A DNA stretch of 64,000 nt from Bacteroidaceae bacterium (GTDB lineage Bacteria > Bacteroidota > Bacteroidia > Bacteroidales > Bacteroidaceae), in the NCBI GenBank assembly GCA_017651315.1, contig JAGCDE010000031.1:1-64000 (forward strand), in the 5' to 3' direction. The notes under the pieces are model-generated. The model worked only from the letters and a program-made list of their open reading frames with translations. It was not told where the DNA came from and ran no database searches. The translations under genes and the position numbers were made by a program. Shown piece by piece: positions 435 to 17,790 of the stretch (the stretch's first letter is position 1; each line of letters opens with the position of its first letter).

Positions 435-501
435 TATATTCATACACATTATTTAACTACACATTATTACAAGGAATCCGATATTTGAGTATGTTTGCAT
501 T

Positions 502-1575
502 ATGAAAGAGACTAACCGTTCTGGGATTTCCCAAATAACCGTCTGTGCGTGCTCTTCACGTAATTTCATAGATAAATCATTCGTGGCAGTGATTGCGGCC
601 AAAGCTGTCAAGGCTGGTGTCAAGGTACGTCTTGTGGCCGATTTGTGCAAACTTGTCGGAGAATCGGACAGCAAACTTGTCGGAGAATCGGACAGCAGGC
701 TTGTCGGAGAATCGGACAGCAGGCTTGTCGGGGAATCGGACAGCGGACTTTCCGGGATTGCCGGCGGGGTTGTCGCAGCCTGTCATCCGCGGGCTGTAAG
801 GAGCCTTTTTTCCGGTATGGGGCTGGAGCCTGCATCAATATGCAATTTGCGTACCCGTGAGGATATTTTCAGCGGTATTGAACCTGACGATGCCGAGGTG
901 GAACTCTGGAAAGCCAGGATCATGGCACTGCCTTCATGTTACGGCACAGACGCCTGGTTCCCCACTATTGACAAGACCATCTGCGCCGAGTGCGGCAAAT
1001 GCCTTGATTTCTGTCCGTTCGGAGTATATAGCATGGTGAATGACAGAGTGAAGGTGACAAGCCCCGCACGATGCAAGAACAACTGCCCGGCCTGTGCCAG
1101 GACCTGTCCAGCCGGCGCAATCATCTTCCCCAAGCATGATACCGGCCCCATAAACGGCGGACCCGGGGAGATACAATCTGTATCATACGTATTTTCCGCA
1201 GCAGGAGCAGCAAAAGCTGCTGGAGTCGCCAGAACAGCACGAACCTACGGAACACCAGGAACCAACGGAACACCAGGAACCAACGGAACACCAGGAACCA
1301 ACGGAACACCAGGAACCAACGGAACACCAGGAACCAATGGAACACCAGGAACCAACGGAACACCAGGAACCAACGGAACACCAGGAACCGACGGAACACC
1401 AGGAACCAACGGAACATCAGAAGCCAATGGAACATCAGGAACCGACGGAACACCAGGAAGTTCCGTGCTGTATGCTGATGCTTTGCGCCGCCGTCTTCAG
1501 GAGAGACGCGCCAGCGGAATACGGTTCCTGAATCATGGGGAAAGGACCGGCGAACAGGAAAAAACCGATAAATGA
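502..1575 (+). CDS. HdrA-N-like polyferredoxin with two in-frame tandem repeats
   Basis: 357 aa. The N-terminal ~125 residues resemble the N-terminus of heterodisulfide reductase HdrA-type proteins (VCACSS near the start, then GVVAACHPRAV and ICNLRTREDI), which is inference from motif shape. A bacterial ferredoxin domain follows (~residues 150-215) with two cysteine clusters, CAECGKCLDFCP and CKNNCPACARTCP, suited to two 4Fe-4S centres. An 8-residue LVGESDS repeat (four copies) interrupts the N-domain and a TPGTNG repeat (12 units) sits near the C-terminus. No signal peptide, so probably cytoplasmic. The stop overlaps the start of the radical SAM gene (ATGA), implying co-translation. A TATGTTTG box at 490-497 resembles a Bacteroidota -7 element but would leave almost no leader. 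Likely an electron carrier; partner unknown. Confidence 0.75.
   Translation: MKETNRSGISQITVCACSSRNFIDKSFVAVIAAKAVKAGVKVRLVADLCKLVGESDSKLVGESDSRLVGESDSRLVGESDSGLSGIAGGVVAACHPRAVRSLFSGMGLEPASICNLRTREDIFSGIEPDDAEVELWKARIMALPSCYGTDAWFPTIDKTICAECGKCLDFCPFGVYSMVNDRVKVTSPARCKNNCPACARTCPAGAIIFPKHDTGPINGGPGEIQSVSYVFSAAGAAKAAGVARTARTYGTPGTNGTPGTNGTPGTNGTPGTNGTPGTNGTPGTNGTPGTNGTPGTDGTPGTNGTSEANGTSGTDGTPGSSVLYADALRRRLQERRASGIRFLNHGERTGEQEKTDK
649..744 (+). repeat. 24-bp in-frame tandem repeat (LVGESDS), 4 copies
   Basis: Four near-identical 24-bp units starting at 649, 673, 697 and 721 encode K/R-LVGESDS. The unit is a multiple of three and the reading frame is kept. It lies inside the HdrA-N-like domain of the polyferredoxin gene, where a repeat insertion is unexpected. 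High identity between copies suggests recent expansion. Confidence 0.9.
1249..1464 (+). repeat. 18-bp in-frame tandem repeat (GTPGTN), 12 units
   Basis: Twelve 18-bp units (GGAACACCAGGAACCAAC type) encode GTPGTN, with GTPGTD, GTSEAN, GTSGTD and GTPGSS variants towards the 3' end. The low-complexity segment follows the ferredoxin domain and resembles a flexible Gly/Thr/Pro linker or collagen-like tail. Several units are identical at DNA level, so copy number may vary between strains. Confidence 0.9.
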
Positions 1576-2807
1576 TTCTCCATCACGACATGAGCCTTAC
1601 CTGTTACACATCAGTCTTCAAAGCCATCTTCCGCATAATGCGCGGAAGTTCACTGAGACTGCTATGGATATTCTTCAGGAACTTCCTGTTGAGGAACGTA
1701 AGCAACATGCGCCGTTTCAAGCGCCGTCTCAGGAAAGGCAAGCCCTTCTTCCCTGCATTCATGATGATTTCCGTTACCGAGACATGTAATCTGGCCTGTT
1801 CCGGCTGTTGGGTCTCCCGAGGCGGCCGCAAGAGCCTCAGCAAGGAGCAGATTGACGGTATCATCAACCAAAGCAAGAGCCAGGGCAGCTATTTCTTCGG
1901 AATATTAGGAGGTGAACCGCTGCTCTATGACGGGCTTATCGACATACTGGCGGCACACCGCGACTGTTACTTCCAGGTCTTCACCAACGCCACGCTGATA
2001 ACCCCTGAGATAGCATCGGCTATGGCCAGGGCTGGCAACATCACCCCGCTGGTAAGCATCGAGGGGCTGCATGACGAGAGTGACCGTCGCCGTGGGCGTA
2101 CCGATGTGTTTGACCGAACCATGCGCGGAGTTCAGGCCTGCCGCGATGCAAAACTCATATTCGGAGCCGCCGCAAGCATCTGCAAGAGCAATTTCCATGA
2201 ACTGGTAACCCGCCGCCATCTCGAGGATCTGGCCGGACTGGGAGCCGCGTTCATGTGGTATTATATCTACCGGCCGGTAGGTGCCGACCCCCACCCCGAG
2301 AACGCATTGGACAGGAACGAGGTTCAGGAGCTGCGCCGTTTCATAGTGGAGCAGCGCTGTAACGCGCCTCTGTTCATAATTGACACCTATTGGGGTGCCG
2401 ATGGCAAGGCCATGTGCCCGGGTGCCACCGGCATGAGCCATCATATTTCGCCGTCAGGGGCCGTCGAGTTCTGCCCGCCTCTCCAGATGGCATGTGAACA
2501 TCTCACCACCGATGCAGGAAATCTGGTGAACGTGTTCAACAACTCGGAGTTCCTGGACGGGCTGCGAAAATTCACGGCACAGACCAGCCGCGGCTGCGTG
2601 TTGCTTGAGGACCCTGAACATCTGGCTGAGTTCCTGCGCACCCATGATGCCGTGGAGACCACATCACGCGCCACATTCATGAAGGAGCTCGAAGCCATGA
2701 CTCCCCATGCGGGACATGACATGCGTGATGATGCCATCCCAGAGAAGAATCCTCTCTACCGATGGCTGCAAAAGAACTATTTCTTCGGATTCGGAGCATA
2801 CGGATAA
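1572..2807 (+). CDS. radical SAM (SPASM-like) protein
   Basis: 411 aa. The radical SAM cluster motif CxxxCxxC is present as CNLACSGC (C72, C76, C79), followed by the GGEPLL SAM-binding motif ('ILGGEPLLYDG'). The C-terminal half carries more cysteines (CPGATG, FCPPLQMAC and a later C), consistent with an auxiliary Fe-S region of SPASM type. The first ~60 residues are basic and hydrophobic and may associate with the membrane. The family makes 5'-deoxyadenosyl radicals for C-H activation. The start overlaps the upstream ferredoxin gene by 4 bp, making that ferredoxin a candidate reductant. Given the polyprenyl synthase and cyclases downstream, a lipid or isoprenoid substrate is plausible but unproven; peptide modification is an alternative. 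Confidence 0.8.
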   Translation: MILHHDMSLTCYTSVFKAIFRIMRGSSLRLLWIFFRNFLLRNVSNMRRFKRRLRKGKPFFPAFMMISVTETCNLACSGCWVSRGGRKSLSKEQIDGIINQSKSQGSYFFGILGGEPLLYDGLIDILAAHRDCYFQVFTNATLITPEIASAMARAGNITPLVSIEGLHDESDRRRGRTDVFDRTMRGVQACRDAKLIFGAAASICKSNFHELVTRRHLEDLAGLGAAFMWYYIYRPVGADPHPENALDRNEVQELRRFIVEQRCNAPLFIIDTYWGADGKAMCPGATGMSHHISPSGAVEFCPPLQMACEHLTTDAGNLVNVFNNSEFLDGLRKFTAQTSRGCVLLEDPEHLAEFLRTHDAVETTSRATFMKELEAMTPHAGHDMRDDAIPEKNPLYRWLQKNYFFGFGAYG

Positions 2808-3136: not shown

Positions 3137-3185
3137 AAAAGAGGCGGTAAGAAATTTATGAAAACAAAACAGACTGAATTCTAAG

Positions 3186-4652
3186 ATGGACAATACGATA
3201 AGGATTATACCCGACTCTCTGCAGGAGCGCACCCGACTGCGTCATCTGATTGTGGAGTTTGCGGCAGGAGAAAGGCTCTCGCCTCCACTTTCAATCCCCA
3301 CGCTGGAGCGGCTGGCAGACGGATTCATAGCACAGAACCGCATAGACGGCAGACTGCGTGACTGGATTATGGTGGAACTGCATAACTGCGCATGGAGGGA
3401 GACTTTCAGCTCTATTCCTCCTGAACGCCGGCTGCTGCTCCTTCCCAAATGTCTGAGCGATTCGGCACGCTGCACTGCCAGTATTGATGACCTCGGACTG
3501 CTCTGCAACCGCTGCGGACGCTGCAATATCCTCAACCTGCAGGAGTATGCCGACAAGTCAGGAATGCTCAGTCTGGTAGCCGAAGGCTTCACGCAAGTCA
3601 TAGAGCTTATCCGCAACAATGTGGTGGATGCAGTCATAGGGGTGAGTTGTCTGGATTCACTTGAAAAAGCGTTCCCTCTGCTGATTGACAATGCCGTTCC
3701 CGGCATAGCAGTATCGCTGAACCGTGACGGCTGCCATGATACCGACGTAGATGCGGATTATGTAAAGGAGCTTATGGGCAGCAGCGGCCCGGCTGCAGCA
3801 CCGTTGCTGCGGTACGACACAATATTCGATGAGGTAAAGAGCTGGTTTACCCCGGAAAACATCGCCTCCATGTTCACATCCGGCACGGACCTCTCCACCA
3901 AAGCCGCCCTGGACTGGATATGCTCTGACGGCAAACGCTGGCGTCCGTTCCTTCTGACTGCGGTTTACAGCGCACTTACCGGCAATTCCGTATTTCCGGA
4001 GACAGTACGGATGGCTGCGGTGGCTGTGGAGTGTTTCCACAAGGCCTCACTCGTTCATGATGACATTCAGGACCATGACTCCGAGCGTTACGGCCGCCCT
4101 ACGGTCAATGCCCTCTACGGTGATGAACTGGCCATAAACATCGGTGACCTGCTTCTCGGGGAGGGCTACCGCCTGCTGGCCCGTACCGGCATTCCCGAAG
4201 TGCTGCAGGCAGTAGCCGACGCCCATATACTACTCTGCCGCGGACAGGGTACTGAGTTGGAATGGAAAGAGGGAACGCCCGTCACGATGGAGGAAGTTAC
4301 CGGCATCTTCAGGAATAAGACTGTCCCGGCCTTTGAGGTCGCCCTGAAGCTCGGACTCATCTGCGCCGGAGGGGATGAGGCTACGGCCGCAATACTTCAT
4401 GATTTCTCCGAGTCACTCGGTATAGCCTACCAGATCAACGATGACCTTGATGATTCAATGGACCCATCGGTTCCGTCGGCACTGTCGGCAATGCGTCACA
4501 GCCATCCCGGAATGAGCGAAGAGGAAATAAGGGAGAGCCTTTCCCTGCAGTCCCGCAGCTACAGGGACAAGGCATTGGAGGCTGTTGAACGCAGCGGAAG
4601 TCCGGAACTGAAGCGCCTGCTCTTTCAGATAACAGGAAAGATTCTCAAATGA
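3186..4652 (+). CDS. DUF116-polyprenyl synthase fusion
   Basis: 488 aa, two domains. Residues ~60-200 match the DUF116 pattern: PKCL, ARC, LCNRCGRCNI (C89, C96, C107, C110, C113), then VVDAVIGVSCLDSLEKAF and DGCHDTDVD; a metal or Fe-S role is likely but not established. From ~residue 220 it is a trans-isoprenyl diphosphate synthase with FARM D292-D-I-Q-D296 and SARM D419-D-L-D-D423. The residue five before FARM is alanine, as in long-chain synthases and unlike the aromatic residue of farnesyl synthases, so a long product is inferred. It should condense IPP onto allylic diphosphates. The stop overlaps the next start (ATGA). Fusion of the two domains suggests DUF116 acts on or controls prenyl chain synthesis. 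Confidence 0.88.
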   Translation: MDNTIRIIPDSLQERTRLRHLIVEFAAGERLSPPLSIPTLERLADGFIAQNRIDGRLRDWIMVELHNCAWRETFSSIPPERRLLLLPKCLSDSARCTASIDDLGLLCNRCGRCNILNLQEYADKSGMLSLVAEGFTQVIELIRNNVVDAVIGVSCLDSLEKAFPLLIDNAVPGIAVSLNRDGCHDTDVDADYVKELMGSSGPAAAPLLRYDTIFDEVKSWFTPENIASMFTSGTDLSTKAALDWICSDGKRWRPFLLTAVYSALTGNSVFPETVRMAAVAVECFHKASLVHDDIQDHDSERYGRPTVNALYGDELAINIGDLLLGEGYRLLARTGIPEVLQAVADAHILLCRGQGTELEWKEGTPVTMEEVTGIFRNKTVPAFEVALKLGLICAGGDEATAAILHDFSESLGIAYQINDDLDDSMDPSVPSALSAMRHSHPGMSEEEIRESLSLQSRSYRDKALEAVERSGSPELKRLLFQITGKILK

Positions 4653-5374
4653 AAATGAAACGACATCTGACATACGCTCTTTTCAAGGCATTGGAGAAAG
4701 GCTCGTCAAGCCTCAGTCCCGATGCACGGAGAGCCGTATGCCATTATGTCCGCTCAAAGACCCCTGACGGCTGCCGTTTCGTGAACCGTGCGGATAAACC
4801 CGACCTCTACTACACGATGTTCGGATGGGCGGTATCATTCGTGCTGGGAATCAGGGTCAGGATATCCGGCAGGCGCAGGCTGTTACGCCAGACCGACCCC
4901 GAGACACTTGATGAGATGCATCATACCGCATACATGATGCTCAGTCAGCTGCACCGCCTCATGATGCTGCCGAAAGGCGCGGGACTCCCACTCCTTCGGA
5001 TAATGTCACCCGACACCGCTTTGATAAGTTTCCTGAACGGCTACCGGGGACACGGAAGCGGCGGCGGCACCAATGCGGCGGCGATATCCCTGCTATTTGA
5101 CAATGATGAGAACGCCGCTGAACGCCTCAAAAGGATGCAGGACCCGTCAGGCGGATTCCTTTCCAACAGCGGAGCCGCGATTCCCGACATGCTGAGCACC
5201 GCAGCCGCGCTGTTTTCACTCAAGCTCTCCGGAATCGAGCCACCCTACAGTCCGCTGGATTTCATCGAAGCCCACTGGCAGGATGACGGCGGATTCACAG
5301 ACAACCTGTTAGACGGAGCATCAGATATAGAATACATGTTTTACGGACTTCTATCCCTTGGCTCAGCCAACTGA
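4649..5374 (+). CDS. short prenyltransferase/cyclase-like alpha-alpha toroid protein
   Basis: 241 aa, no signal peptide. The C-terminal half has two prenyltransferase/squalene-cyclase type repeats, QDPSGGFLSNSGAAIPDMLS and HWQDDGGFTDNLLDGASD, as in protein prenyltransferase beta subunits and terpene cyclases. There is no DxDD motif and it is about half the length of a complete squalene-hopene cyclase. It overlaps the prenyl synthase gene by 4 bp, and the next, full-length cyclase-like protein begins 4 nt after its stop. It may supply one lobe of a two-subunit enzyme with that neighbour, or bind a prenylated substrate. Function unproven. Confidence 0.7.
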   Translation: MKMKRHLTYALFKALEKGSSSLSPDARRAVCHYVRSKTPDGCRFVNRADKPDLYYTMFGWAVSFVLGIRVRISGRRRLLRQTDPETLDEMHHTAYMMLSQLHRLMMLPKGAGLPLLRIMSPDTALISFLNGYRGHGSGGGTNAAAISLLFDNDENAAERLKRMQDPSGGFLSNSGAAIPDMLSTAAALFSLKLSGIEPPYSPLDFIEAHWQDDGGFTDNLLDGASDIEYMFYGLLSLGSAN

Positions 5375-5378
5375 AGAT

Positions 5379-7097
5379 ATGCAGGATGAAACACTTACCA
5401 CCCGGCAGAAGACTGGCCTTTTGATAGAGGACATCCGGTCCCGCCTGCTCTCCATGCGCCGCAGTGACGGCATGTGGGAGGGATTCCTCTCCAGCAGCGC
5501 CATATCCACATCGGTATCGGTATTTGCGCTGAGCCTTATAGACAGGGATAAATACTCCGCTCTGATAAGCAACGGCATAAAGTGGTTAGAGAGCACCATG
5601 AAACCCGACGGCTCATGGGGAGACAGTCCGGAAAGCCCGTCAAACATGACCGCCACCCTGCTCTCCTACACCGCACTCTACCATACCGGCCATGTACCGG
5701 CAGTGACAAAGGAGCATATTCTCAACACATTGGGTTGGGACACTGAACAGAAACTTATTGACGGCATATCGGCCTATTACGGCAAGGACCTGACATTCTC
5801 GGTCCCCATACTCACCATGTGCGCACTGGCCGGAGTCCTGAGCAGCTGGAAGAGCATCACCCCCTTCCCGTTTGAGCTTGCCACACTGCCCCAGAGTACG
5901 TTCCGGTTCCTCAACCTTCCGGTGGTGAGCTACGCCATCCCGGCGCTCATCGCCATAGGAATCCTGCAGAACCGTAAGCGCCGCACGCTGATGCGTCCTT
6001 TCCGCGAGCTGTTCACCGCCAAGGCCATGAGGGTCCTCACCCGGCTTCAGCCCGATGACGGGGGATTCTTAGAGGCGGCTCCGCTCACGGCTTTCGTAAG
6101 CATGTGCCTTGCCGAGGGAGGTTTCCGTGACCATCAGGTAACCCGGTCATGCGCCCGTTTCCTGGAAGAGACCGTGCGCGAGGACGGTTCCTGGCCCATT
6201 GACACCAACCTGACAGGATGGGTAACATCGCTTGCAGCCAAGGCCTTGGGTTCAGACCTTGAGGACCGGCAGCAGCTGGCCGATATAATCTGCCGCAACG
6301 CCACGACCCATGTCCATCCCTTTACCGGTGCCGCTGCCGGCGGATGGGGCTGGAGTAACCTTTCCGGCTCGGTACCCGACGGCGATGACACATCAGGTGC
6401 GCTCGTAGCGCTGCACGTGCTTACTGACGGCAAATACCGCCCCGAAATAGGAGCCGGGATAGAGTGGCTCATTGGCCTTCAGAACAATGACGGCGGCATG
6501 CCCACCTTCTGCAAGGGCTGGGGCAGACTGCCGTTCGACCGCAGCACCCCCGATATCACCGCCCATGCCATTCTGGCCATGAGCCTTTGGAATGATAGCC
6601 TTCCCGATGAGATAAAGAGGCGCTGCTCACGCAGTCTGGACCGTATGATAAGATGGATGGAAAAGGAGCAGGGCGGCGACGGCAACTGGAACCCGCTCTG
6701 GTTCGGCGACCAGGATGCTCCCGATGAACATAACCTGGTCTATGGAGCAGCCACGCTGGCCGATTACCTTATGTCCAGCGGCAATGAGCGTGCCCGCAGA
6801 CTGGCCGAACGCAGCATCCGTTACCTCTTAGAGAGCCAGAACCCTGACGGCGGCTGGGGCGGTCAGGCAGGTGTGGAGTCCAAGGTTACGCTCACGGCCA
6901 GGGCAATCGGTGCGTTAAGTTTCTGTAAATCACAATCAGAAGAGCAGATTTCGCGGGGAATTGATTATCTTTATGCCCTGTTTGAGGAAAACCGGCTTTA
7001 CAGGCGTGAACCCATAGGACTCTATTTCTCGCGTCTTTGGTATTCTGAAGACCTGTACAACCTTACATTTATGCTTACAGCACTCAAGAGACTATGA
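5379..7097 (+). CDS. squalene-hopene-cyclase family class II terpene cyclase-like protein
   Basis: 572 aa from ATG 5379 (a TTG at 5358 in the same frame is less likely). Six or more QW-like repeats are visible (DGSWGDS, DDGGFLEA, DGSWPIDTNLTGW, NNDGGMP, GGDGNW, NPDGGWGGQ). Residues ~322-343 read GWGWSNLSGSVPDGDDTSG, aligning by eye with the catalytic region of squalene-hopene cyclases (GW-F....PDVDDTA). The general-acid motif is D334-G-D-D337. Class II cyclases protonate a polyprene or its epoxide to start cyclisation. Two hydrophobic stretches (~residues 148-200) could insert in the membrane. Its place after the polyprenyl synthase suggests it acts on that product. No squalene synthase (HpnCDE/SQS) is nearby, so the substrate is probably not squalene unless supplied from elsewhere. 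Confidence 0.78.
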   Translation: MQDETLTTRQKTGLLIEDIRSRLLSMRRSDGMWEGFLSSSAISTSVSVFALSLIDRDKYSALISNGIKWLESTMKPDGSWGDSPESPSNMTATLLSYTALYHTGHVPAVTKEHILNTLGWDTEQKLIDGISAYYGKDLTFSVPILTMCALAGVLSSWKSITPFPFELATLPQSTFRFLNLPVVSYAIPALIAIGILQNRKRRTLMRPFRELFTAKAMRVLTRLQPDDGGFLEAAPLTAFVSMCLAEGGFRDHQVTRSCARFLEETVREDGSWPIDTNLTGWVTSLAAKALGSDLEDRQQLADIICRNATTHVHPFTGAAAGGWGWSNLSGSVPDGDDTSGALVALHVLTDGKYRPEIGAGIEWLIGLQNNDGGMPTFCKGWGRLPFDRSTPDITAHAILAMSLWNDSLPDEIKRRCSRSLDRMIRWMEKEQGGDGNWNPLWFGDQDAPDEHNLVYGAATLADYLMSSGNERARRLAERSIRYLLESQNPDGGWGGQAGVESKVTLTARAIGALSFCKSQSEEQISRGIDYLYALFEENRLYRREPIGLYFSRLWYSEDLYNLTFMLTALKRL

Positions 7098-8518: not shown

Positions 8519-8552
8519 CAGAATAACAGAATGACCACAGACACTGACCGAT

Positions 8553-9584: not shown

Positions 9585-10168
9585 CTATGGATAAGAAAAA
9601 AGAGAAAGGACTGAGCAGCCCCATGGAGCGCAGGGAGTTCCTGCGCAAGTGCGGCACCCTGATTGCCGGCGGCAGCCTGGCGGCTATTGGTGGCGTGCTG
9701 GGAAGCCGTGCCAAAGCAGCCGGAGGTGACACAATGTGGCAGATAGATCCCGAGCTCTGCATCCGATGCGGACGCTGCCAGACGGAGTGCGTCCTGCCCG
9801 TATCGGCCGTAAAGTGTTTCCACGCCAATCAGGTGTGCGGTTACTGCGACCTTTGCGGAGGCTACTACCGTGCCAACGTGAAGGAGCTGAACACCGCGGC
9901 CGAGAACATGCTCTGCCCCACCGGAGCCATAACCCGCAAGTTCGTGGAGGAGCCCTATTTCGAGTACACCATAAACGAGGACCTCTGCAACGGCTGCGGC
10001 AAATGCGTGAACGGCTGTTCATCGTTCGGCAACGGCTCCCTGTTTCTGCAGATACAGCAGGAGCTCTGCCTTAACTGCAATGAATGTTCCATCTCAAAGG
10101 TATGCGTATCGAACGCCATCCAGCGCGTTCCGGTAAGCAGTGCCTATAAACTCAAGGACAAGGCATGA
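9581..10168 (+). CDS. Tat-exported multi-cluster 4Fe-4S ferredoxin
   Basis: 195 aa from ATG 9581, which overlaps the upstream stop; an upstream GTG at 9539 is possible but unlikely. Twin-arginine signal ERREFLRKCG, then a hydrophobic stretch ending around GSRAKAAGG. It carries several 4Fe-4S motifs: CIRCGRCQTECVLP, CGYCDLCGGYY, CNGCGKCVNGCS and CLNCNECSISKVC, resembling NapG/HybA-type periplasmic ferredoxins. Likely role: electron carrier on the outer face of the cytoplasmic membrane next to the NapH-like protein encoded downstream (4-bp overlap). Confidence 0.83.
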   Translation: MTMDKKKEKGLSSPMERREFLRKCGTLIAGGSLAAIGGVLGSRAKAAGGDTMWQIDPELCIRCGRCQTECVLPVSAVKCFHANQVCGYCDLCGGYYRANVKELNTAAENMLCPTGAITRKFVEEPYFEYTINEDLCNGCGKCVNGCSSFGNGSLFLQIQQELCLNCNECSISKVCVSNAIQRVPVSSAYKLKDKA

Positions 10169-11418
10169 ATAAATTCCTGATTGCCCGGTTCCCCAAGCCT
10201 GACTTCACGTCCGGCTACCAGTATCCCGAGATAATCCACGGACTGCCATACGAGACATTCTGGTCATGGATGGATGTTGCCGTGCTCATCATCATGCTCA
10301 GCATTGCCGCATGGGCAGTACATAAGCGACGCAGCCGCAGCGTGCTGTTTACGGAGAGCATCATTTCCGTGCTGTACTTCGGATTCTTCAGGAGCGGATG
10401 CGTATGCAGCGTAGGTTCCATCCAGAACGTGGTGCTGGCCCTGAATGACAGCAGCTACAACCTGCCGCTGGCCGTGCTGCTGCTGTTCCTTATACCTCTT
10501 GTATCCGCCCTCTTCTTCGGCCGCGTGTTCTGCGCCGGAGTATGCCCCATGGGTGCGCTCCAGGAGATTGTGAATGTGCGCAGCTTCAGGCTGAGCCGCG
10601 CCGTCACCAACGCATTAGGATTCATCCCCTGGATATATCTGGCATTTGCCATCATGTATGCAGCTACCCGAAGCCAGTTCATCATTTGCCGTTTTGACCC
10701 TTTCATCGGGATTTTCCGCATGGGCGGCGACATTGGCATGATAGTTTTCGGAGTGATCCTGCTGCTTTTGTCGGTATTCATGGGACGTCCGTTCTGCCAG
10801 TTCCTCTGCCCCTACGGAGCACTTATGGGACTGGTTAGCCGCGTATCGGTCCGCAGGGTCGAGGTCACGGCCAAGGAGTGCATAAACTGCACCCTGTGCC
10901 ACAACGCCTGCCCGGTGGATGCCATACGCCCGCCCCACGCCAACCGCCCGGAAGAGACACGCATGACGGGTGTCAGGCGCATCCTGCTCTATTTCGTGAT
11001 GCTGCCGCTGCTGACCGTAGGCGGCGCCCTGCTCATGCAGAGCCGCAGCGAGGTCCTGGCCGGAGCCGACAAGGACGTGCGCCTGATGCGCATGCTTGAG
11101 GCCTACGATGCCGCCCCCGATGAGGGTATGACCCCCGAGGTGGAGGCATTCTATGAGATGGGCCGTTCAATCGATGAACTCTCCGAAAGGGTGGATGCCA
11201 CCCTGCTCAGTTTCCGCCACTGGTCACTGATAGCCGGAGGTATGATAGGACTGGCACTCGGATGCCGTCTGATACGCCTCTCCGTAAAGCGAACCCGCAA
11301 GACATACGAGATTGAACCTGCCGCCTGCGTGGCCTGCGGCAAGTGTTTCAACTACTGCCCGCAGAACAAGTCAAAGATAAACACCGATAAGATAAAATAT
11401 GAACCGCAAAATCTATAG
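10165..11418 (+). CDS. NapH/NosR-like membrane polyferredoxin
   Basis: 417 aa. About six hydrophobic segments. Two CxxxCP motifs, GRVFCAGVCPMGAL and GRPFCQFLCPYGAL, are the hallmark of the NapH/NosR/RdxA family and face the cytoplasm or bind electrons near the membrane. A ferredoxin motif CINCTLCHNACPVDAI follows, and the C-terminus has another, CVACGKCFNYCP. An extra FRSGCVCSVGS segment lies near residue ~80. These proteins pass electrons between the quinone pool or cytoplasmic donors and periplasmic ferredoxins. It probably bridges the NuoEF/NuoG-like proteins and the Tat ferredoxin of this operon. Its last 20 bp overlap the next gene. Confidence 0.85.
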   Translation: MNKFLIARFPKPDFTSGYQYPEIIHGLPYETFWSWMDVAVLIIMLSIAAWAVHKRRSRSVLFTESIISVLYFGFFRSGCVCSVGSIQNVVLALNDSSYNLPLAVLLLFLIPLVSALFFGRVFCAGVCPMGALQEIVNVRSFRLSRAVTNALGFIPWIYLAFAIMYAATRSQFIICRFDPFIGIFRMGGDIGMIVFGVILLLLSVFMGRPFCQFLCPYGALMGLVSRVSVRRVEVTAKECINCTLCHNACPVDAIRPPHANRPEETRMTGVRRILLYFVMLPLLTVGGALLMQSRSEVLAGADKDVRLMRMLEAYDAAPDEGMTPEVEAFYEMGRSIDELSERVDATLLSFRHWSLIAGGMIGLALGCRLIRLSVKRTRKTYEIEPAACVACGKCFNYCPQNKSKINTDKIKYEPQNL

Positions 11419-13297
11419 GAACCTGGCCGTAGTGACGGCTGTGTTCGCTCTGGCTCTGGCAGTCATGCTCACCGTGAGCCGGGTGCAGATGAGGCGTACC
11501 TCACCGCTCCAGTCACAGGTCATGGAGACCCTGAAGGAGCTCTATGAGAGTAATCCCGACAATGAGGAGCTCGGGCAGGAGATACGTCAGTTAGACCTGC
11601 TCTCCCGCCGCGCCTATTTCACGCAGGAGAGCCAGCTCAAGAGCGGAATATGGATTCTCTGCATAATGGGAGCCATACTTGCATTCTGTCTGCGCATGTA
11701 TTACAAGGACACCATGAACCTGCCGGCCAAGGAGCTGGATGCCATAGACGAGTGGATAAGCAAGAGCCGCTCCCGCCGCTACCTTAACTGGGGAGTAGCG
11801 GCACTGATAGCTGTGACACTGCTCATAGGAGTGTTCAGCTCCGACCGTTTCAAAGCCCTCTTCCACTCTACCCGCCCCGATGAACAGATAGCAGAAGAAC
11901 AAGCTGATGAAGTGGATGAACCCGCAAATGACTATGAAGAGTACTATGCCCAAGCCACAGCCCCGGAGCCAGAACCCGAATCTGAACCGCAGCCGGAGTC
12001 ACAGCCTGCAACAGAGCCTGCACCTTCCCAGGCACCGGTTACAGAAAGCGCTCCCGAGACAGAGCAGCCCAAGCCTGAGGCCGGAACGGCACCGGAACCG
12101 GCCAACACCAATGCCCAACAGCCAACAGCCGACACCCAACAGGCAACAGCCAAAACCGCCCCATGGCCCTCATTCCGAGGCCCCAACGCCAGCGCCCGCT
12201 CATCGGTCCGCGGCATCCCCACCGCCTGGAACCTCTCATCGGGCCAGAACATAGCATGGAAGGCCCAGGTGCCCAAGCAGGGTTATAACTCTCCCGTCAT
12301 ACACTCAGGCAGCATTTTCCTTACCGGAGCCGATGAGGAGGCCCGTGAACTCTACTGCTTTGACCTGGCGAGCGGTCAGCTGCGCTGGACGGCAAAGGCC
12401 GACGGCATTGCCGGATCGCCCTCCACCATGCCGAATGTCAACGAAGACACCGGACTGGCGGCATCGACCGTGGCCACCAACGGCGAGCAGGTCTGCGCCA
12501 TATTCGCCACGGGTGACCTGCTCTGCACCGACATGGAGGGCAAGCGTCTGTGGGCAAAGAACTTAGGCGTTCCCGACAACCATTACGGATTTGCATCATC
12601 ACTCATCATAAGCGGCAACCGGCTCATAGTACAGTATGACAACAATGACAAGGCACAGCTTATCTGTATAGATACCCGCAACGGCAACCAGCTCTGGGCC
12701 AAGACCCGTAAGGACAGGATAGCATGGAGTTCGCCTATCATTACCCAGGCCGCGGGACAGCAGGCGGTCATAGTGATGGGCAATCCCGCCATAACCGCCT
12801 ACAGCCTGAGCAACGGTACCGAACTGTGGAGAGTGGAGTGCATGAGCGGCGAGGTGGGCGCCAGCCCCTGCGCATCGGACGGGATAGTCTTCGGAGCCAG
12901 CGAGTACGCCACCGTGGCTGCCATAGACAGCAAGGACGGTACGGTGCTCTGGGAGTCCGATGAGTGCATGCCCGAGTGCTCCAGCCCTGTGGCAACCAAG
13001 GATATGCTCTATGTGGCCACCAGTTACGGAGCCGTCTGCGCATACAATGCCTCCAACGGCGAGGTGGTCAAACAGCATGAGCTGGACACCCCGTTCTACT
13101 CATCGCCCGTGATTGCCGACGGTAAGATATGGCTCTTCAGCAACAGCGGAAAATGCTATATCTTCTCCACCGGTGCCGGATTTGACCTTATCACCAGTTT
13201 TGAGACAGGCGAGCAGACATTCGCAACCCCCGCATTCACCGATGGAATGATGGTGGTCCGCAGTGAGAAGAGTCTGTACGTGGTAAAAAAGAGTTGA
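11399..13297 (+). CDS. membrane-anchored PQQ-like propeller with Pro/Glu linker
   Basis: 632 aa in three parts: three predicted membrane segments in the first ~170 residues (around 8-25, 80-98 and 130-147); an acidic Pro/Glu/Gln/Ala-rich linker (~residues 175-250); and a PQQ-like beta-propeller beginning PWPSFRGPNASARS. Blades show the GQLRWTAK, GKRLWAKN, GNQLWAKT, GTELWRVE and GTVLWESD docking motifs. The linker would let the propeller reach through the periplasm. The two TMs between residues 80 and 147 make it a true membrane protein rather than merely secreted. Likely scaffold or electron-acceptor component; enzymatic activity cannot be claimed. Confidence 0.75.
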   Translation: MNRKIYRNLAVVTAVFALALAVMLTVSRVQMRRTSPLQSQVMETLKELYESNPDNEELGQEIRQLDLLSRRAYFTQESQLKSGIWILCIMGAILAFCLRMYYKDTMNLPAKELDAIDEWISKSRSRRYLNWGVAALIAVTLLIGVFSSDRFKALFHSTRPDEQIAEEQADEVDEPANDYEEYYAQATAPEPEPESEPQPESQPATEPAPSQAPVTESAPETEQPKPEAGTAPEPANTNAQQPTADTQQATAKTAPWPSFRGPNASARSSVRGIPTAWNLSSGQNIAWKAQVPKQGYNSPVIHSGSIFLTGADEEARELYCFDLASGQLRWTAKADGIAGSPSTMPNVNEDTGLAASTVATNGEQVCAIFATGDLLCTDMEGKRLWAKNLGVPDNHYGFASSLIISGNRLIVQYDNNDKAQLICIDTRNGNQLWAKTRKDRIAWSSPIITQAAGQQAVIVMGNPAITAYSLSNGTELWRVECMSGEVGASPCASDGIVFGASEYATVAAIDSKDGTVLWESDECMPECSSPVATKDMLYVATSYGAVCAYNASNGEVVKQHELDTPFYSSPVIADGKIWLFSNSGKCYIFSTGAGFDLITSFETGEQTFATPAFTDGMMVVRSEKSLYVVKKS

Positions 13298-13302
13298 CTG
13301 TA

Positions 13303-15705
13303 ATGGCTTGCGAAGACTGTAACATACACTCCCCCGAGGATGCCCGCCAGGCCACCGTTCGCCGCACCGATGCCATCATAGACCGCATCGGCCGTGAGCG
13401 GCGTCATATCATACCCCTGCTTCAGGCCCTGCAGGACGAGTTCAGCTATCTGCCGTCCGAAGCGCTGGAGCGTGTCTATGAGCGTACTGAGATAGACCGG
13501 GCCCAGATGATAAGCGTGGCCACCTTCTATGCGCAGTTCCGCATGATTCCATACGGACGCCATACCATCAAGGTGTGCTGCGGAACGGCCTGCCACGTAA
13601 AGGGAGCCAACACCGTCTATGACGCTTTCAAAAGGGAGCTTGGCATAGGCGATGACACCATAACCACCGCCGACCGCGAGTATTCCATAGAGAAGATAGC
13701 CTGCTTAGGCTGCTGTGCGCTGGCTCCGGTGGTCCAGATTGACAATAAGATTTACGGGCATGTGCAGCCGGGACGTGTGGATGCCGTGCTTGAGGAGTTT
13801 GAACGTGACTCTGCAGAGCAGCAGAAGGCCGCCATAGAGCGTGCCAACCGCCAGCCCCTTGGTGAGGTCCGTTTCGGTATGGAGAATTGCTGCCAGGCCA
13901 GCGGCACAGCCCAGATAAAGGAGGCTGTGGAGCAGGCCTGCCGGGAGCTTGGCATAGACGTGGATATCAAACCGGTATCATGCGTTGGAGCCTGCAATCA
14001 GGTGCCGCTCATAGACGTAGCCATGCCCGACGGCTCCATAACCCGCTACCCCAACATACGCCCCGATCAGGTAAAGGAGATACTGCTGCACCATTTCCGC
14101 CCCGCATCGGCACTGCGCCGTCTCAGGAACGCCCTGCTCAATCAGGTAGATAATTTCCATACAGACCAGACTTGGGACAACATACTCTACCTGAGCGAGA
14201 AACAGCGTACCCAGAGTATAAACACCTTCCTTGACGGCCAGAAACGCATCTCGACCGAAGGATACGGACTCATGAACCCGCTCGACATTGACGAGTACAT
14301 ACGCCGTGGCGGATTTGACGCCCTTAAGAAAGTCCTCAAGACTGACCGCAGCGAGGTTATAAACGAGGTGCTGGCCAGCGGCATCCGTGGCCGAGGAGGC
14401 GGCGGATTCCCGTCAGGCCGTAAATGGAGCCTGGTGGCCGGTCAGCCCGATACCGTACGGTATGTGATATGCAACGGCGATGAGGGCGATCCGGGTGCAT
14501 TCATGGACCGCATACTGCTGGAGTCATATCCGCTGCGTGTAATTGAGGGACTGGTAATCGCGGCATACGCCGTAGGAGCACAAAATGGTATTCTCTATAT
14601 CCGTGCCGAATACCCGCAGGCAGTAATCCGTGTACGCCGCGCCTTGGAGATGTGCCGTCAGAAAGGACTGATAGGAGAGAATGTCTTAGGAAGCGGATTC
14701 TCCATCGGGATAAGCCTCTTTGAGGGAGCCGGTGCTTTTGTTTGCGGTGAGGAGACCGCACTTATAGCTTCTATCGAGGGCAAGCGCGGATTCCCCCATC
14801 TTCGTCCGCCTTATCCTGCCGAGAAGGGTCTCTTCGGCCACCCCACCCTCATAAACAATGTGGAGACTCTGAGTCAGATTCCGTTCATCATAAGGAACGG
14901 GGCACGGGCTTACGCATCGGTGGGAACCGAAGGGAGCAAGGGCACAAAAGTGTTCGCCCTGGCCGGCAAGGTACGCCACGGCGGACTGATTGAGGTGCCC
15001 ATGGGAACCACCCTGCGTGATATAGTCGAGAAGATTGGCGGAGGCGTGGAGAAGGGTGAGCAGCTCAAGGCAGTACAGACCGGTGGCCCGTCGGGCGGCT
15101 GCATACCTGCAAGCCTGTGTGACACCCCTGTCGATTTCGACGCCCTGAACCGTATGGGGGCCATCATGGGCTCCGGCGGTCTGGTAGTACTGAGCGAAAG
15201 CGACTGCATGGTCGATGTGGCCCGCTATTTCCTGAACTTCATCTCGGGCGAGAGTTGCGGCAAATGCACATTCTGCCGCGTAGGTGCCCGCCGTATGCTG
15301 GACCTCTTAGACAAGATTACCGCCGGCAAGGCTGAGATGGCCGATATAGACCGGCTTGAGGAACTTGCCCTGAGCGTCAAGAAAGCCGCTCTGTGCGGAC
15401 TGGGCAAGACCGCCCCCAACCCCGTGCTCTCCACCCTGCAGCATTTCCGCCATGAATATGAGGAGCATGTGAACGGAATATGCCGCACCGGCTCCTGCAA
15501 GCAGATGGTGAAACTGACCGTTACCGATGACTGCATAGGCTGCACCAAGTGCGCCCGCTGCTGTCCGGCCGACGCCATCCCCTTCGAACCATATAAGATA
15601 CACACCATAGACACAGAGAAATGCACTCTGTGCGGACTGTGTATAGATGAATGTGACTTCAATGCCATCAAGTATGAGAATAAGCGTAAACAACCAGCCG
15701 TTTGA
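13303..15705 (+). CDS. NuoE-NuoF fusion (HydC/HydB-like NADH:acceptor oxidoreductase)
   Basis: 800 aa from ATG 13303 (a TTG at 13294 overlapping the upstream stop is the alternative). Domain order: NuoE/HydC-like thioredoxin fold with 2Fe-2S ligands (CCGTACHVKG and CLGCC, ~1-165); a second 2Fe-2S thioredoxin-like domain (CCQASG, SCVGACN, ~175-265); NuoF core with FMN/NADH-binding GRGGGGFPSGRKW (~360) and CNGDEGDPGAFMDR; the N3-type 4Fe-4S motif SCGKCTFCRVG (~650); and two C-terminal 4Fe-4S motifs, CIGCTKCARCCP and CTLCGLCIDEC (~743-790). This is the architecture of HydB-type bifurcating subunits with HydC fused in front. It should oxidise or reduce NAD(H). No complex I membrane subunits and no H-cluster subunit are nearby. 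Confidence 0.9.
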   Translation: MACEDCNIHSPEDARQATVRRTDAIIDRIGRERRHIIPLLQALQDEFSYLPSEALERVYERTEIDRAQMISVATFYAQFRMIPYGRHTIKVCCGTACHVKGANTVYDAFKRELGIGDDTITTADREYSIEKIACLGCCALAPVVQIDNKIYGHVQPGRVDAVLEEFERDSAEQQKAAIERANRQPLGEVRFGMENCCQASGTAQIKEAVEQACRELGIDVDIKPVSCVGACNQVPLIDVAMPDGSITRYPNIRPDQVKEILLHHFRPASALRRLRNALLNQVDNFHTDQTWDNILYLSEKQRTQSINTFLDGQKRISTEGYGLMNPLDIDEYIRRGGFDALKKVLKTDRSEVINEVLASGIRGRGGGGFPSGRKWSLVAGQPDTVRYVICNGDEGDPGAFMDRILLESYPLRVIEGLVIAAYAVGAQNGILYIRAEYPQAVIRVRRALEMCRQKGLIGENVLGSGFSIGISLFEGAGAFVCGEETALIASIEGKRGFPHLRPPYPAEKGLFGHPTLINNVETLSQIPFIIRNGARAYASVGTEGSKGTKVFALAGKVRHGGLIEVPMGTTLRDIVEKIGGGVEKGEQLKAVQTGGPSGGCIPASLCDTPVDFDALNRMGAIMGSGGLVVLSESDCMVDVARYFLNFISGESCGKCTFCRVGARRMLDLLDKITAGKAEMADIDRLEELALSVKKAALCGLGKTAPNPVLSTLQHFRHEYEEHVNGICRTGSCKQMVKLTVTDDCIGCTKCARCCPADAIPFEPYKIHTIDTEKCTLCGLCIDECDFNAIKYENKRKQPAV

Positions 15706-16630
15706 AGTGTCGGGCAACAAAACTCTTATCGAGGAGCTGCGTGCCGCCGGTATTGAAGTGCCGTCACTCTGCTATGCGGGTGGGCATGAACATCATGCGT
15801 CATGCATGGTCTGCATGGTCAAGGACGTCCGTACCGGCCAGATGCTGCCCTCCTGCTCCACCATGCCGCGTGATGGTATGGAGATTGAGACCGACAGCCC
15901 CGAGGTCAAGGAGCTGCGCCGCATGTCGATAGAACTGCTCCTGAGTGACCATCGCGCCGACTGCGAGGCCCCCTGCACCCTGGTCTGCCCCAAAGGCATT
16001 GACGCCGCCCAGGTGATATGGTATTATGACAACGGCATGAAAGCCGAGGCAAAGGCCCTGCTTGACGGCCGCGACTGCCGAGACTGCGCCAGGACCCCCT
16101 GCATGAAAGCCTGCCGCCGCGGAACGGTTGACAACAGCGTTGACATAAAAGGAATCATCGACAATCTGGCAGCCGACGACTCAATTCCCACCGCTAATGC
16201 CGTTTCCATGGCCGATACCGGCAAGGAAACCTTCAACAGCCGGATTGGTCGGTTTACAGATATGGAAAAGAGCCTGATGCGGCAGCAATATACTCAGCAT
16301 TCACACTGCCTTCACTGCGCCTGCAACGGACGTGACAAATGCCGCCTGCGCCGCTTATCTACCGAAGCCGGCATCAAGGCCACCCGCTACGGAGTGTCAT
16401 CGGAACTGCCGTTCAAGCAGGAGACTCAGGTCAAAGGCCGTCTGTGGTTTGACCCGGCCAAATGCATCCGCTGCGGACTCTGCGTCTATAACACCACCGA
16501 CGGTTTCACATTCCGGTACCGCGGCTACCGCATGCAGGTGATAATCCCCGATGAAAGCAGGGATAACGTGACCGAGGAGATTGTACAGCTCTGCCCCACC
16601 GGAGCGCTCTATATAAGCAAGGAGAAATGA
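15674..16630 (+). CDS. NuoG N-terminus/HydA-N-like 2Fe-2S and 4Fe-4S protein
   Basis: 318 aa from ATG 15674; an in-frame ATG at 15647 lies deeper in the upstream gene. The N-terminal 2Fe-2S domain (~1-75) has LCYAGGHEHHASCMVCMV and SCSTMP. Next come H-x-C type and extra clusters (HRADCEAPCTLVCPKG and CRDCARTPCMKACRRG), similar to the N-terminal arms of NuoG, formate dehydrogenase and GltD-like proteins. HCLHCACNGRDKC and a C-terminal CIRCGLCVYNT plus LCPTGALY complete a ferredoxin wire. There is no molybdopterin or H-cluster domain. It would pass electrons from the NuoEF-like protein, whose gene it overlaps by 32 bp, to another partner such as the NapH-like protein. Confidence 0.82.
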   Translation: MRISVNNQPFEVSGNKTLIEELRAAGIEVPSLCYAGGHEHHASCMVCMVKDVRTGQMLPSCSTMPRDGMEIETDSPEVKELRRMSIELLLSDHRADCEAPCTLVCPKGIDAAQVIWYYDNGMKAEAKALLDGRDCRDCARTPCMKACRRGTVDNSVDIKGIIDNLAADDSIPTANAVSMADTGKETFNSRIGRFTDMEKSLMRQQYTQHSHCLHCACNGRDKCRLRRLSTEAGIKATRYGVSSELPFKQETQVKGRLWFDPAKCIRCGLCVYNTTDGFTFRYRGYRMQVIIPDESRDNVTEEIVQLCPTGALYISKEK

Positions 16631-17790
16631 AATCAGGGACTCCGCTCATATTATCGGTATTTACAGCCATGATGCTTATCACCGGCTGCAGGAACGGTAC
16701 GGGCGGAACCGGCAGAGAGCGGGCATCGGACTGGACCATGTTCCGTGGGGAGCCGTCACTGAGCGGCTATACGGACCGCCGTCTGCCGTCGGACCCGGTA
16801 CTGCTGTGGGAGTACAGGCATGGCGTGAGGACCGTGGCATCGGCCATAGTATATAAGGATGTAACCTATTTCTGCGACAAGCACGGGCTCCTGACAGGCA
16901 TAGACCGCGACGGGCAGGAGGTGTCGCGCATAGACCTGGATGCGCCTATGGAGGCATCGTTCATGGTGCTGGACTCGGTGCTCTATTTCGGGATGATAGA
17001 CGGCGATGTCCGTGCCGTATCGCTGGCCGACGGCAGCCTGCTCTGGTCCTATCAGACCGAAGGACAGATAAACGCCGCCCCCGCACTTACCACAGTAAAA
17101 GGGCACCGCTATCTGCTGGCCGGCAGCTATGACAACAACATGTACACAATAGATGCCGAAACGGGAGCACTGGCCGGCTCGGCATCGACCGGATACTACA
17201 TAAACGGAGCAGCTGCCGTTTGGAAAGAGTATGCCCTGTTCGGCGGTTGTGACTCCTGGCTCCGTATGGTTAATTCAGCCACCGGCGTAGTAGCCGACTC
17301 AGTCCAGCTGGATGCCTACATACCGTCATCGCCCGCCATAGTCGATGACATGGCCTACGTGGCCGATTACAGCGGCAATGTTTATGAAATCAGCCTTAAC
17401 GGAGGCCGGTTCAGTTCATGCCGCAAGCTGCGCACCGCCGCCGATGATGAGGGTGCCATGCTCTCCATGCCGGCCGTAGGCCGAAAATACATCTATGTGC
17501 TGGCCGATGAACGCTACATACAATGTATAGACCGCAGGGACGGAACTCTGATCTGGCAGCAGACACTCAAGAGCGAATCGGGCGAAAGCTCCCCGCTTAT
17601 ATGCCGCGACCGCGTGATAGCCTCCACCAAGAGCGGTATAATTACAATCTACGATGCCGGAACCGGTGAGCGTCTCTGGGAGTACGAGACAGGCGAGCAG
17701 ATAATCTCCACCCCCGCCCCCCTCTCCGACCGCTTCATGATAATGACCGCCCGGGGCACCCTGCTCTGTTTCGGCAACAGGCAGGAATAA
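16627..17790 (+). CDS. PQQ-like beta-propeller lipoprotein
   Basis: 387 aa. Lipoprotein signal ending in lipobox ITGC (Cys ~21). The mature part starts DWTMFRGEPSLSGY, sharing the 'W-FRG' opening with the other propellers of the run, then repeated blades (GSLLWSYQ, GTLIWQQT, GERLWEYE). It overlaps the NuoG-like gene by 4 bp and is the last gene of the run. As a lipoprotein it would sit in the outer face of the inner membrane or in the outer membrane. Similar to BamB in fold only; the partner is probably one of the exported redox proteins encoded upstream. Confidence 0.75.
   Translation: MKSGTPLILSVFTAMMLITGCRNGTGGTGRERASDWTMFRGEPSLSGYTDRRLPSDPVLLWEYRHGVRTVASAIVYKDVTYFCDKHGLLTGIDRDGQEVSRIDLDAPMEASFMVLDSVLYFGMIDGDVRAVSLADGSLLWSYQTEGQINAAPALTTVKGHRYLLAGSYDNNMYTIDAETGALAGSASTGYYINGAAAVWKEYALFGGCDSWLRMVNSATGVVADSVQLDAYIPSSPAIVDDMAYVADYSGNVYEISLNGGRFSSCRKLRTAADDEGAMLSMPAVGRKYIYVLADERYIQCIDRRDGTLIWQQTLKSESGESSPLICRDRVIASTKSGIITIYDAGTGERLWEYETGEQIISTPAPLSDRFMIMTARGTLLCFGNRQE

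What the first reader, a model, noticed from the sequence alone, without database searches (positions are those of the whole stretch)
502..17790. A ~17-kb co-translated run joining isoprenoid synthesis/cyclisation with an NADH-linked transmembrane ferredoxin chain
Thirteen same-strand genes, nearly all with ATGA overlaps, combine a radical SAM protein, a DUF116-prenyl synthase, two toroid cyclase-like proteins, four propellers, NuoEF and NuoG-like proteins, a NapH-like protein and a Tat ferredoxin. Seen: order, overlaps, motifs. Known: NuoEF handles NAD(H), NapH-type proteins move electrons across the membrane, class II cyclases act on polyprenes. Inference: a redox system that uses or modifies a cyclised isoprenoid, perhaps a novel membrane electron carrier or a redox-processed lipid. 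I know of no described system with this set.
Basis: partly seen in the sequence, partly recalled or inferred. Interest (0 to 1): 0.88.

Follow-up and report, generated by a model that had tools for sequence, protein, structure and literature searches.

The report
Cyclic-isoprenoid factory with membrane electron chain
In a Bacteroidales genome, two conserved gene sets that other bacteria carry separately or together lie side by side in one run: one is predicted to build a ring-shaped isoprenoid lipid and the other is predicted to carry electrons from NADH across the membrane, so together they would likely make and use an as yet unknown lipid.

Summary
The 13 genes exist as described, but the thing is larger and is two modules. 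Module A (502-7097, plus MIP-CobW at 25996-27915): iron-sulphur protein, radical SAM, DUF116-prenyl synthase, a toroid nearest to Rab geranylgeranyltransferase beta, and a DxDD cyclase. Module B (7094-17790, plus ABC-FtsX and a glycosyltransferase): propellers, Tat ferredoxin, NapH-like protein, and 'NuoEF', really a fused electron-bifurcating (Bfu-type) core with a BfuA-like partner. Of 35 Bacteroidota loci with enough flank, 33 keep nine genes of A+B in one order. The modules are separable: A without B in 47 of 58, B without A in 11 of 22 planctomycete genomes; B without A in 23 of 32 genomes of the window's order. Yet they co-occur above expectation and lie together on three separate branches of the NapH-like tree. 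Elsewhere A often carries a lipoyl-carrier protein and CobW. Best reading: A makes a cyclised, radical-modified polyprenyl lipid; B drives electrons to the periplasmic side, where that lipid is reduced or used. Product and acceptor are unknown. Eight paper searches listed no such system.

The parts
502..1575 (+). Module A: iron-sulphur protein; N-terminal CxC...DLC...ACxPRAV domain, then two [4Fe-4S] ferredoxin motifs, then a collagen-like tail
   Evidence: Pfam Fer4_6 and Collagen; eight ferredoxin Cys in 80 of 80 aligned; N-terminal Cys pattern
1572..2807 (+). Module A: radical SAM protein with further C-terminal Cys
   Evidence: PF04055 E 2.7e-20; C72, C76, C79, C282, C301, C342 in 66 of 66 aligned
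3186..4652 (+). Module A: DUF116 fused to (E)-polyprenyl diphosphate synthase
   Evidence: PF01976 and PF00348 above cut-off; seven Cys and both Asp motifs kept in 92 sequences
4649..5374 (+). Module A: small alpha-toroid, nearest to Rab geranylgeranyltransferase beta
5358..7097 (+). Module A: class II (DxDD) terpene cyclase-like protein; TTG start
   Evidence: PF13243/PF13249; PDxDDT in 73 of 73 aligned
7094..8518 (+). Module B: PQQ-type beta-propeller with N-terminal hydrophobic stretch (PQQa)
   Evidence: PF13360; stretch 1-25
8553..9584 (+). Module B: NHL-like propeller, Tat-type start in the window, with an adjacent Cys pair (C248, C249)
   Evidence: Cys pair in 60 of 60 aligned; Tat match below cut-off, RRGFLK by eye; scytonemin-type NHL match
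9581..10168 (+). Module B: Tat-exported ferredoxin, NapG-like in place and type
   Evidence: Fer4 above cut-off; twin Arg in 64 and 63 of 64; start ATG at 9581 or 9587
10165..11418 (+). Module B: NapH-like membrane iron-sulphur protein
   Evidence: PF12801; Cys motifs kept in 64-65 of 65 aligned; five hydrophobic stretches
11399..13297 (+). Module B: PQQ-type propeller with N-terminal membrane helices (PQQb)
   Evidence: PF13360; three hydrophobic stretches
13294..15705 (+). Module B: fused BfuC-BfuB (HydC-HydB-type) NADH/FMN/Fe-S electron-bifurcating core; TTG start
   Evidence: PF01257, PF01512, PF10531, PF10589, Fer4; nearest solved relatives bifurcating enzymes; B2-cluster His and two Cys in 15 of 15 full-length rows
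15647..16630 (+). Module B: BfuA/NuoG-like iron-sulphur protein, short form (327 aa)
   Evidence: PF13510 above cut-off; forms of 517-562 aa in 10 of 15 rows
16627..17790 (+). Module B: PQQ-type propeller, lipoprotein-like signal (PQQc)
   Evidence: PF13360; signal ending LITGC read by eye
20964..21632 (+). Module B: ABC transporter ATPase
   Evidence: PF00005; neighbour of B genes in 5 of 10 loci of other phyla
21629..24607 (+). Module B: large FtsX-type permease
   Evidence: PF02687; with the ABC gene in the same loci
24604..25869 (+). PQQ-type propeller (PQQd)
   Evidence: PF13360; copies near the block in many loci
25996..26814 (+). Module A accessory: MIP-family (aquaporin-type) channel
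   Evidence: PF00230; in 8 of 60 Bacteroidota loci and in L074 beside the module
26821..27915 (+). Module A: CobW-type GTPase
   Evidence: PF02492; same strand in 9 of 20 module A loci of other phyla
27852..29186 (+). Module B: glycosyltransferase (group 1 type)
   Evidence: PF13692; next to ABC-FtsX or PQQc in 4 of 10 loci of other phyla and in G287

Best explanation
The run is two conserved gene modules side by side: module A is predicted to make a cyclised isoprenoid lipid from a polyprenyl diphosphate, and module B is predicted to move electrons from NADH (with ferredoxin) through a membrane iron-sulphur pair to the periplasm, where that lipid would likely be their substrate or carrier. 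Steps inferred: (1) the DUF116-prenyl synthase makes a polyprenyl diphosphate, likely longer than C20 (Ala at position -5 of the first Asp motif); (2) the DxDD protein protonates and cyclises its far end; (3) the RabGGTase-beta-like toroid binds the prenyl diphosphate and passes it on; (4) the radical SAM protein (a second radical SAM type in some planctomycete-type loci), fed by the module's own ferredoxin, forms a bond on the isoprenoid; outside Bacteroidota a lipoyl-carrier protein, CobW and sometimes a cysteine desulphurase help, which suggests a sulphur or metal step; (5) the Bfu-type core takes electrons from NADH and ferredoxin and sends them by its BfuA-like partner to the NapH-like protein and the Tat ferredoxin; (6) the NHL propeller with its adjacent Cys pair is the likely periplasmic site; (7) ABC-FtsX and the glycosyltransferase export or decorate the product. 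Shown: genes, order, motifs, recurrence, co-occurrence. Not shown: product, acceptor, coupling.
For: Order kept in 33 of 35 Bacteroidota loci with enough flank. DxDD in 73 of 73, both Asp motifs of the synthase (first D of the second motif 89 of 92, the others 92 of 92), seven DUF116 Cys in 92 of 92. No squalene/phytoene synthase in the window's genome (PF00494 0 of 1, found in 7 of 14 controls; genome 83% complete), so the cyclase substrate is likely the module's own prenyl diphosphate. Bfu core by domains, nearest structures and the B2 His (family definition in PMC9304861, first parts of sections 4 and 6). A and B co-occur: 9 of 10 A genomes have B in the order sample against 23 of 188 without A (p 2e-7), 11 of 58 against 11 of 186 in planctomycetes (p 0.0045; 0.014 if the partial hit G436 is dropped). 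On the NapH-like tree the Bacteroidales joined clusters are one group (100/100) and the joined clusters G205 and G287 branch elsewhere; G479 is a further joined case, too short for the tree.
Against: A lives without B in 47 of 58 planctomycete genomes and, as far as these incomplete genomes tell, in 10 of the 21 genomes behind L073-L095, so making the lipid does not need B. B lives without A in 23 of 32 order-level and 11 of 22 planctomycete genomes. G009 kept B and lost A. The separate joined branches could also be remnants of one old arrangement that broke up often. The window's genome has a UbiA-type gene, so a quinone is probably made too and need not be replaced. The Fisher tests ignore relatedness. 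No gene in the block is an obvious redox head-group maker or terminal reductase.
Confidence: 0.5

Rival explanations
1. Two unrelated modules share one operon in Bacteroidales: A makes a structural lipid, B is a general NADH-to-periplasm electron line that serves other clients; their neighbourhood carries no function. (This overlaps with the next rival; the odds are not exclusive.)
For: Each module occurs without the other in many genomes; G009 retains B after loss of A.
Against: A and B lie together on three separate branches of the NapH-like tree (Bacteroidales group, G205, G287), with G479 as a fourth, unplaced case; 9 of 10 A genomes in the order sample have B; four-base overlap at the A-B junction in the window.
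Confidence: 0.3
2. A makes a hopanoid-like membrane-ordering lipid from a prenyl diphosphate instead of squalene, with the radical SAM protein adding a head as HpnH does; B only supplies reducing power for saturation of double bonds.
For: DxDD cyclase and radical SAM neighbours as in hopanoid clusters (the comparison is recalled); A without B in many genomes; a glycosyltransferase and exporter in B.
Against: The radical SAM protein scores 44 bits on the HpnH model (cut-off 225) and higher on heme and peptide maturase models, all below their cut-offs; lipoyl carrier, CobW and cysteine desulphurase in module A of other phyla are not hopanoid genes (recalled).
Confidence: 0.3
3. The RabGGTase-beta-like toroid attaches the cyclised isoprenoid to cysteines of proteins (bacterial protein prenylation), for example of the module's own Cys-bearing propellers.
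Against: The His of the DPFHT stretch, a zinc ligand in that enzyme (recalled), aligns with a Tyr that is invariant in 81 of 81; no alpha-subunit family among the matches of the block's proteins.
Confidence: 0.08

Closest known systems
Bfu family of electron-bifurcating enzymes (HydABC, StnABC and kin; PMC9304861)
   Same: Fused BfuC-BfuB domains, FMN/NADH site, C-terminal ferredoxin pair, B2 His and Cys; BfuA-like neighbour
   Different: Neighbours are a NapH-like membrane protein, a Tat ferredoxin and propellers; no hydrogenase, formate dehydrogenase or complex-I partner gene seen in the block. That paper leaves 17 BfuB clades without a function; whether this is one of them I could not test
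Squalene-hopene cyclase and drimenyl diphosphate synthase (class II cyclases)
   Same: Two-domain toroid, DxDD motif; nearest solved relatives (the second name)
   Different: 69.9 bits on the hopene cyclase model (cut-off 431); no squalene synthase found in the genome; companion synthase fused to DUF116
NapGH quinol dehydrogenase
   Same: Tat ferredoxin next to a polytopic iron-sulphur membrane protein
   Different: Far below the NapH/MauN and NapG model cut-offs (62.3 of 213; 16.6 of 269); stands beside a Bfu core; extra C-terminal [4Fe-4S] motif
Protein prenyltransferase beta subunits (Rab GGTase)
   Same: Fold and nearest profile of the small toroid
   Different: Zinc His (recalled) replaced by invariant Tyr; bacterial, 241 aa here
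Hopanoid radical SAM HpnH
   Same: Radical SAM protein beside a cyclase (recalled for HpnH)
   Different: 44.2 bits against a cut-off of 225

Membership tests
Bfu electron-bifurcating family | BfuB and BfuC domains (NADH/FMN, SLBB, NADH_4Fe-4S, ferredoxin; NuoE type) as listed in PMC9304861 | tested here: met
   PF01512, PF10531, PF10589, PF00037 and PF01257 above cut-off in one protein (matching of InterPro to Pfam numbers recalled)
Bfu electron-bifurcating family | B2-cluster His absent from non-bifurcating homologues, with its Cys ligands | tested here: met
   H725, C730, C735 in 15 of 15 rows of 700-950 aa (46 rows with the window; 31 cut or too short); aligned with solved bifurcating subunits
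Bfu electron-bifurcating family | BfuA partner with 2Fe-2S and 4Fe-4S domains | tested here: met
   PF13510 (48.3 bits, cut-off 22.8) and PF13459 (22.9, cut-off 22.4) in 15647-16630
Bfu electron-bifurcating family | Measured bifurcation between NAD(H), ferredoxin and a third substrate | not testable with these tools
   needs purified protein
Class II (DxDD) terpene cyclase | DxDD protonation motif in a two-domain toroid | tested here: met
   PDxDDT in 73 of 73 aligned; PF13249 and PF13243 above cut-off
Squalene-hopene cyclase | NCBIfam equivalog score | tested here: not met
   69.9 of 431 bits
Squalene-hopene cyclase | Squalene supply in the genome | tested here: inconclusive
   no PF00494 found, but the genome is 83% complete
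(E)-polyprenyl diphosphate synthase | Two Asp-rich motifs | tested here: met
   D292, D293, D296, D420, D423 in 92 of 92, D419 in 89 of 92
Protein prenyltransferase beta subunit | Toroid fold | tested here: met
Protein prenyltransferase beta subunit | Catalytic zinc ligands (His of DPFHT; role recalled) | tested here: not met
   aligned residue is Tyr55, 81 of 81
NapH / NapG | NCBIfam model scores | tested here: not met
   NapH/MauN subfamily 62.3 of 213; NapG 16.6 of 269
NapGH-like pair | Tat signal on the ferredoxin, Cys motifs in a polytopic membrane partner | tested here: met
   twin Arg 64/64 and 63/64; Cys motifs 64-65 of 65; hydrophobic stretches
HpnH adenosyl-hopene transferase | NCBIfam equivalog score | tested here: not met
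   44.2 of 225 bits
HdrA N-terminal domain (for DUF116 and for the start of the first gene) | Shared fold or profile | tested here: inconclusive

The most novel reading that the evidence does not exclude
Module A makes a cyclised polyprenyl redox cofactor, a membrane electron carrier that is neither a quinone nor methanophenazine, and module B is its dedicated Bfu-driven reductase that hands electrons to the cell surface.
Probability: 0.17. Interest if true: 0.95.

Novelty: categorically new. Interest (0 to 1): 0.75.

Why it matters
Many bacteria (58 of 244 sampled planctomycete genomes, four of these hits partial; 10 of 198 sampled genomes of the window's order; and Acidobacteria, Verrucomicrobia and Armatimonadetes records) keep genes for what looks like an undescribed cyclic isoprenoid. 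In Bacteroidales, many of them from rumen and gut samples by their record titles, these genes sit in one run with a bifurcating-type NADH line to the periplasm. If the product is a redox lipid it would add a class of membrane electron carrier; if it is a structural lipid it would be a candidate for orphan cyclic lipids in anoxic settings. Records not marked as metagenome-assembled exist (Parabacteroides distasonis, Mangrovibacterium marinum, Carboxylicivirga linearis, Plebeiobacterium marinum), so it is testable in culture.

Tried and rejected
Squalene as substrate: judged less likely, no squalene/phytoene synthase found in the own genome, with the limit that the genome is 83% complete. Complex-I origin of 'NuoEF': rejected. 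One indivisible 13-gene system: rejected. Quinone replacement: not supported, a UbiA-type gene is present. Lipoyl carrier in the Bacteroidales version: no match in the 60 Bacteroidota loci; the own genome has a single GcvH-type hit, 26% identical. Relation of DUF116 to the first gene's N-terminus: profile comparison finds none (hhalign probability 1.4%). HdrA-N resemblance of that N-terminus: seen by eye against a recalled motif; profile search of solved structures lists no HdrA. DUF116 fold: no Foldseek match at E 0.001. My label 'B12rSAM' in scripts: a radical SAM protein by Pfam, no cobalamin domain found, so the label is not used here. Internal promoters/terminators: counts like shuffles.

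Literature: eight searches of the held library; the lists shown (capped at 10 of 49 and at 20 of 24) held no paper on such a system as far as titles and abstract starts tell. Read: PMC9304861, abstract, found passages and the first parts of sections 4 and 6; PMC11406978, one term search without a hit; the rest only as listings. Most papers of subscription journals and preprints are not held.

Dropped rows. Aligned of found (window row counted): synthase 92 of 93, cyclase 73 of 79, toroid 81 of 87, radical SAM 66 of 79, iron-sulphur protein 80 of 83, Tat ferredoxin 64 of 69, NapH-like 65 of 71, NHL 60 of 69, Bfu core 15 of 46, all by length. The GcvH-like count of 10 has L079 twice. L036, L071 and L144 were left out of the NapH tree as cut pieces. 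L083 counts as Bacteroidota but is among the 21. L013 and L051 are the same contig stretch, L027 and L028 look like near-copies, and L035/L043 and L040/L055 are pairs from one organism each, so rows are not all independent. In the order-level samples 90% completeness was asked for; G000 (83%) stayed in.

Full report
WHAT IS THERE. The window is the first 64,000 of 68,183 bases of contig C27 of a genome of 2.69 Mb, 83% complete. I place it in Bacteroidales because its congener G030 carries the same 9,706-base contig as the record titled uncultured Bacteroidaceae bacterium (L016), and G059 of the same order carries a contig of a record titled Bacteroidales bacterium (L051). Nine or ten of twelve junctions overlap, six or seven by four bases, depending on the start of the Tat ferredoxin; the junction between the radical SAM gene and the prenyl synthase is a 378-base gap that holds a 40-base repeat twice, at 2906 and 2981. 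After 17790 come an AAA-ATPase/PDDEXK_9 gene and a minus-strand gene, and then ABC ATPase, FtsX permease, a PQQ-type protein, MIP, CobW, a glycosyltransferase and a Mrp/NUBPL-type gene to 30378.

RECURRENCE. Among the 60, the iron-sulphur gene is on the same strand in 55, radical SAM in 58, the small toroid in 57, the cyclase in 52, PQQa in 44, NHL in 40, Tat ferredoxin and NapH-like in 39, PQQb in 33, the Bfu core in 25, many contigs or stretches ending inside the block. Of the 35 with at least 2.2 kb before and 9 kb after the synthase, 33 have nine genes (iron-sulphur protein to NapH-like) in one order; L025 and L035 do not. Of the 20 in other phyla, 11 have 4 kb on both sides; 4 show iron-sulphur protein, radical SAM, synthase, toroid, cyclase in this strict order, and 7 lack or move one or more. 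Five of the 20 carry another radical SAM protein (PF04055) within the stretch.

TWO MODULES. In 21 genomes behind loci L073-L095 I looked for the NapH-like protein: 11 have it over nearly its full length at 39-43% identity, one has a weak hit only, nine have none. I fetched the surroundings in ten of the eleven. In a sample of 198 genomes of the order, A is in 10, B (NapH-like) in 32, both in 9 (Fisher p 2e-7). Of nine B-only loci, seven show the full row from a PQQ protein to PQQc, L116 shows four genes of it and L113 only the NapH-like one by this search. In 244 genomes of the planctomycete phylum A is in 58 (four of these hits partial: G284, G334, G436, G446), B in 22, both in 11 (p 0.0045; 0.014 without G436). 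In the genus (37 genomes) the cyclase is in 2 and the NapH-like protein in 3. The third, G009, begins to match the window at 6960, 138 bases before the end of the cyclase gene, with ordinary chromosomal genes upstream: A lost, B kept, unless the assembly is at fault.

JOINING. A and B are contiguous in G205 (order level), and in planctomycetes G287 (FtsX-ABC-GT-PQQc-BfuA-Bfu-PQQb-NapH-ferredoxin-NHL-PQQa-cyclase-toroid-synthase-radical SAM, read backwards, the Bacteroidales order) and G479 (another order inside A). In a tree of 58 NapH-like proteins, the 21 joined Bacteroidales rows form one group with support 100/100, and G205 and G287 lie apart from it and from each other. G479 was too short to be placed. 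Repeated joining is the simplest reading; one old joined state broken up many times is not excluded.

MODULE B CHEMISTRY. The 803-aa protein has NuoE-type, FMN/NADH, SLBB, 4Fe-4S and C-terminal ferredoxin domains. Its nearest solved relatives are bifurcating-enzyme subunits (NfnB, HydB and kin), then formate dehydrogenase and complex-I subunits. The His and two Cys that mark the B2 cluster of the Bfu family (PMC9304861) are kept in 15 of 15 full-length members and align with the solved ones. The NapH-like protein has five hydrophobic stretches and kept cysteine motifs. The ferredoxin carries a twin-arginine start (64/64 and 63/64); the NHL protein has one in the window, but in the alignment the two Arg are kept in only 42 and 28 of 60. 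The NHL protein has an adjacent Cys pair in 60 of 60. I take this as the best candidate for a periplasmic acceptor site; nothing tests it yet.

HOW IT LIKELY WORKS. Inferred chain: polyprenyl diphosphate (DUF116-synthase), cyclisation (DxDD), hand-over (toroid), radical modification (radical SAM with its ferredoxin), then export or decoration (ABC-FtsX, glycosyltransferase), with NADH and ferredoxin electrons brought by the Bfu core through the NapH-like protein and the Tat ferredoxin to the periplasmic face. That the lipid meets the electrons is the least certain step; the joining and co-occurrence of A and B is the argument for it, their frequent separation the argument against.

NOVELTY. 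The parts belong to known families; the assembled system has no described counterpart in what the eight searches of the held library listed. The Bfu paper that I read in part leaves 17 BfuB clades without a function; whether this core is one of them I could not test.

Noticed in passing
window 1249-1420: The first iron-sulphur protein has a collagen-like GTPGTN repeat tail (Pfam Collagen) and four LVGESDS repeats near 646-750; of 11 relatives printed at the end, ten are 212-269 aa long (357 here).
   Followed up: partly
window 2-505: Start of the contig is a tandem of near-identical units that reads as repetitive open frames in two frames.
   Followed up: no
window 2906-3020: Two copies of a 40-base repeat in the 378-base gap between the radical SAM gene and the synthase.
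   Followed up: no
window 17870-20724: An AAA-ATPase/PDDEXK_9 gene and a minus-strand gene with a weak Lcl_C match stand between PQQc and ABC, which are adjacent in the relative G059 (L014): a probable insertion.
   Followed up: partly
L164 15532: In congener G009 the match to the window starts inside the last 138 bases of the cyclase gene: module A is gone, B stays.
   Followed up: yes
window 8553-9584: NHL-like protein has an adjacent Cys pair (CGCCNP stretch) in 60 of 60 aligned relatives and, in the window's group, a Cys-rich C-terminus.
   Followed up: partly
window 15647-16630: The BfuA-like protein is short here (327 aa) and 517-562 aa in 10 of 15 aligned rows.
   Followed up: no
L024, L034, L038, L041, L053 and others, upstream of module A: A sensor kinase-like gene (cluster in 15 loci) and a LytTR-type-looking regulator gene (cluster in 17 loci) precede module A in Bacteroidota loci (type read by eye).
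   Followed up: no
L084, L085, L087, L092, L128, L138: A different radical SAM protein stands just before the synthase or cyclase, where the usual one is elsewhere; in L073 it lies about 10 kb away.
   Followed up: partly
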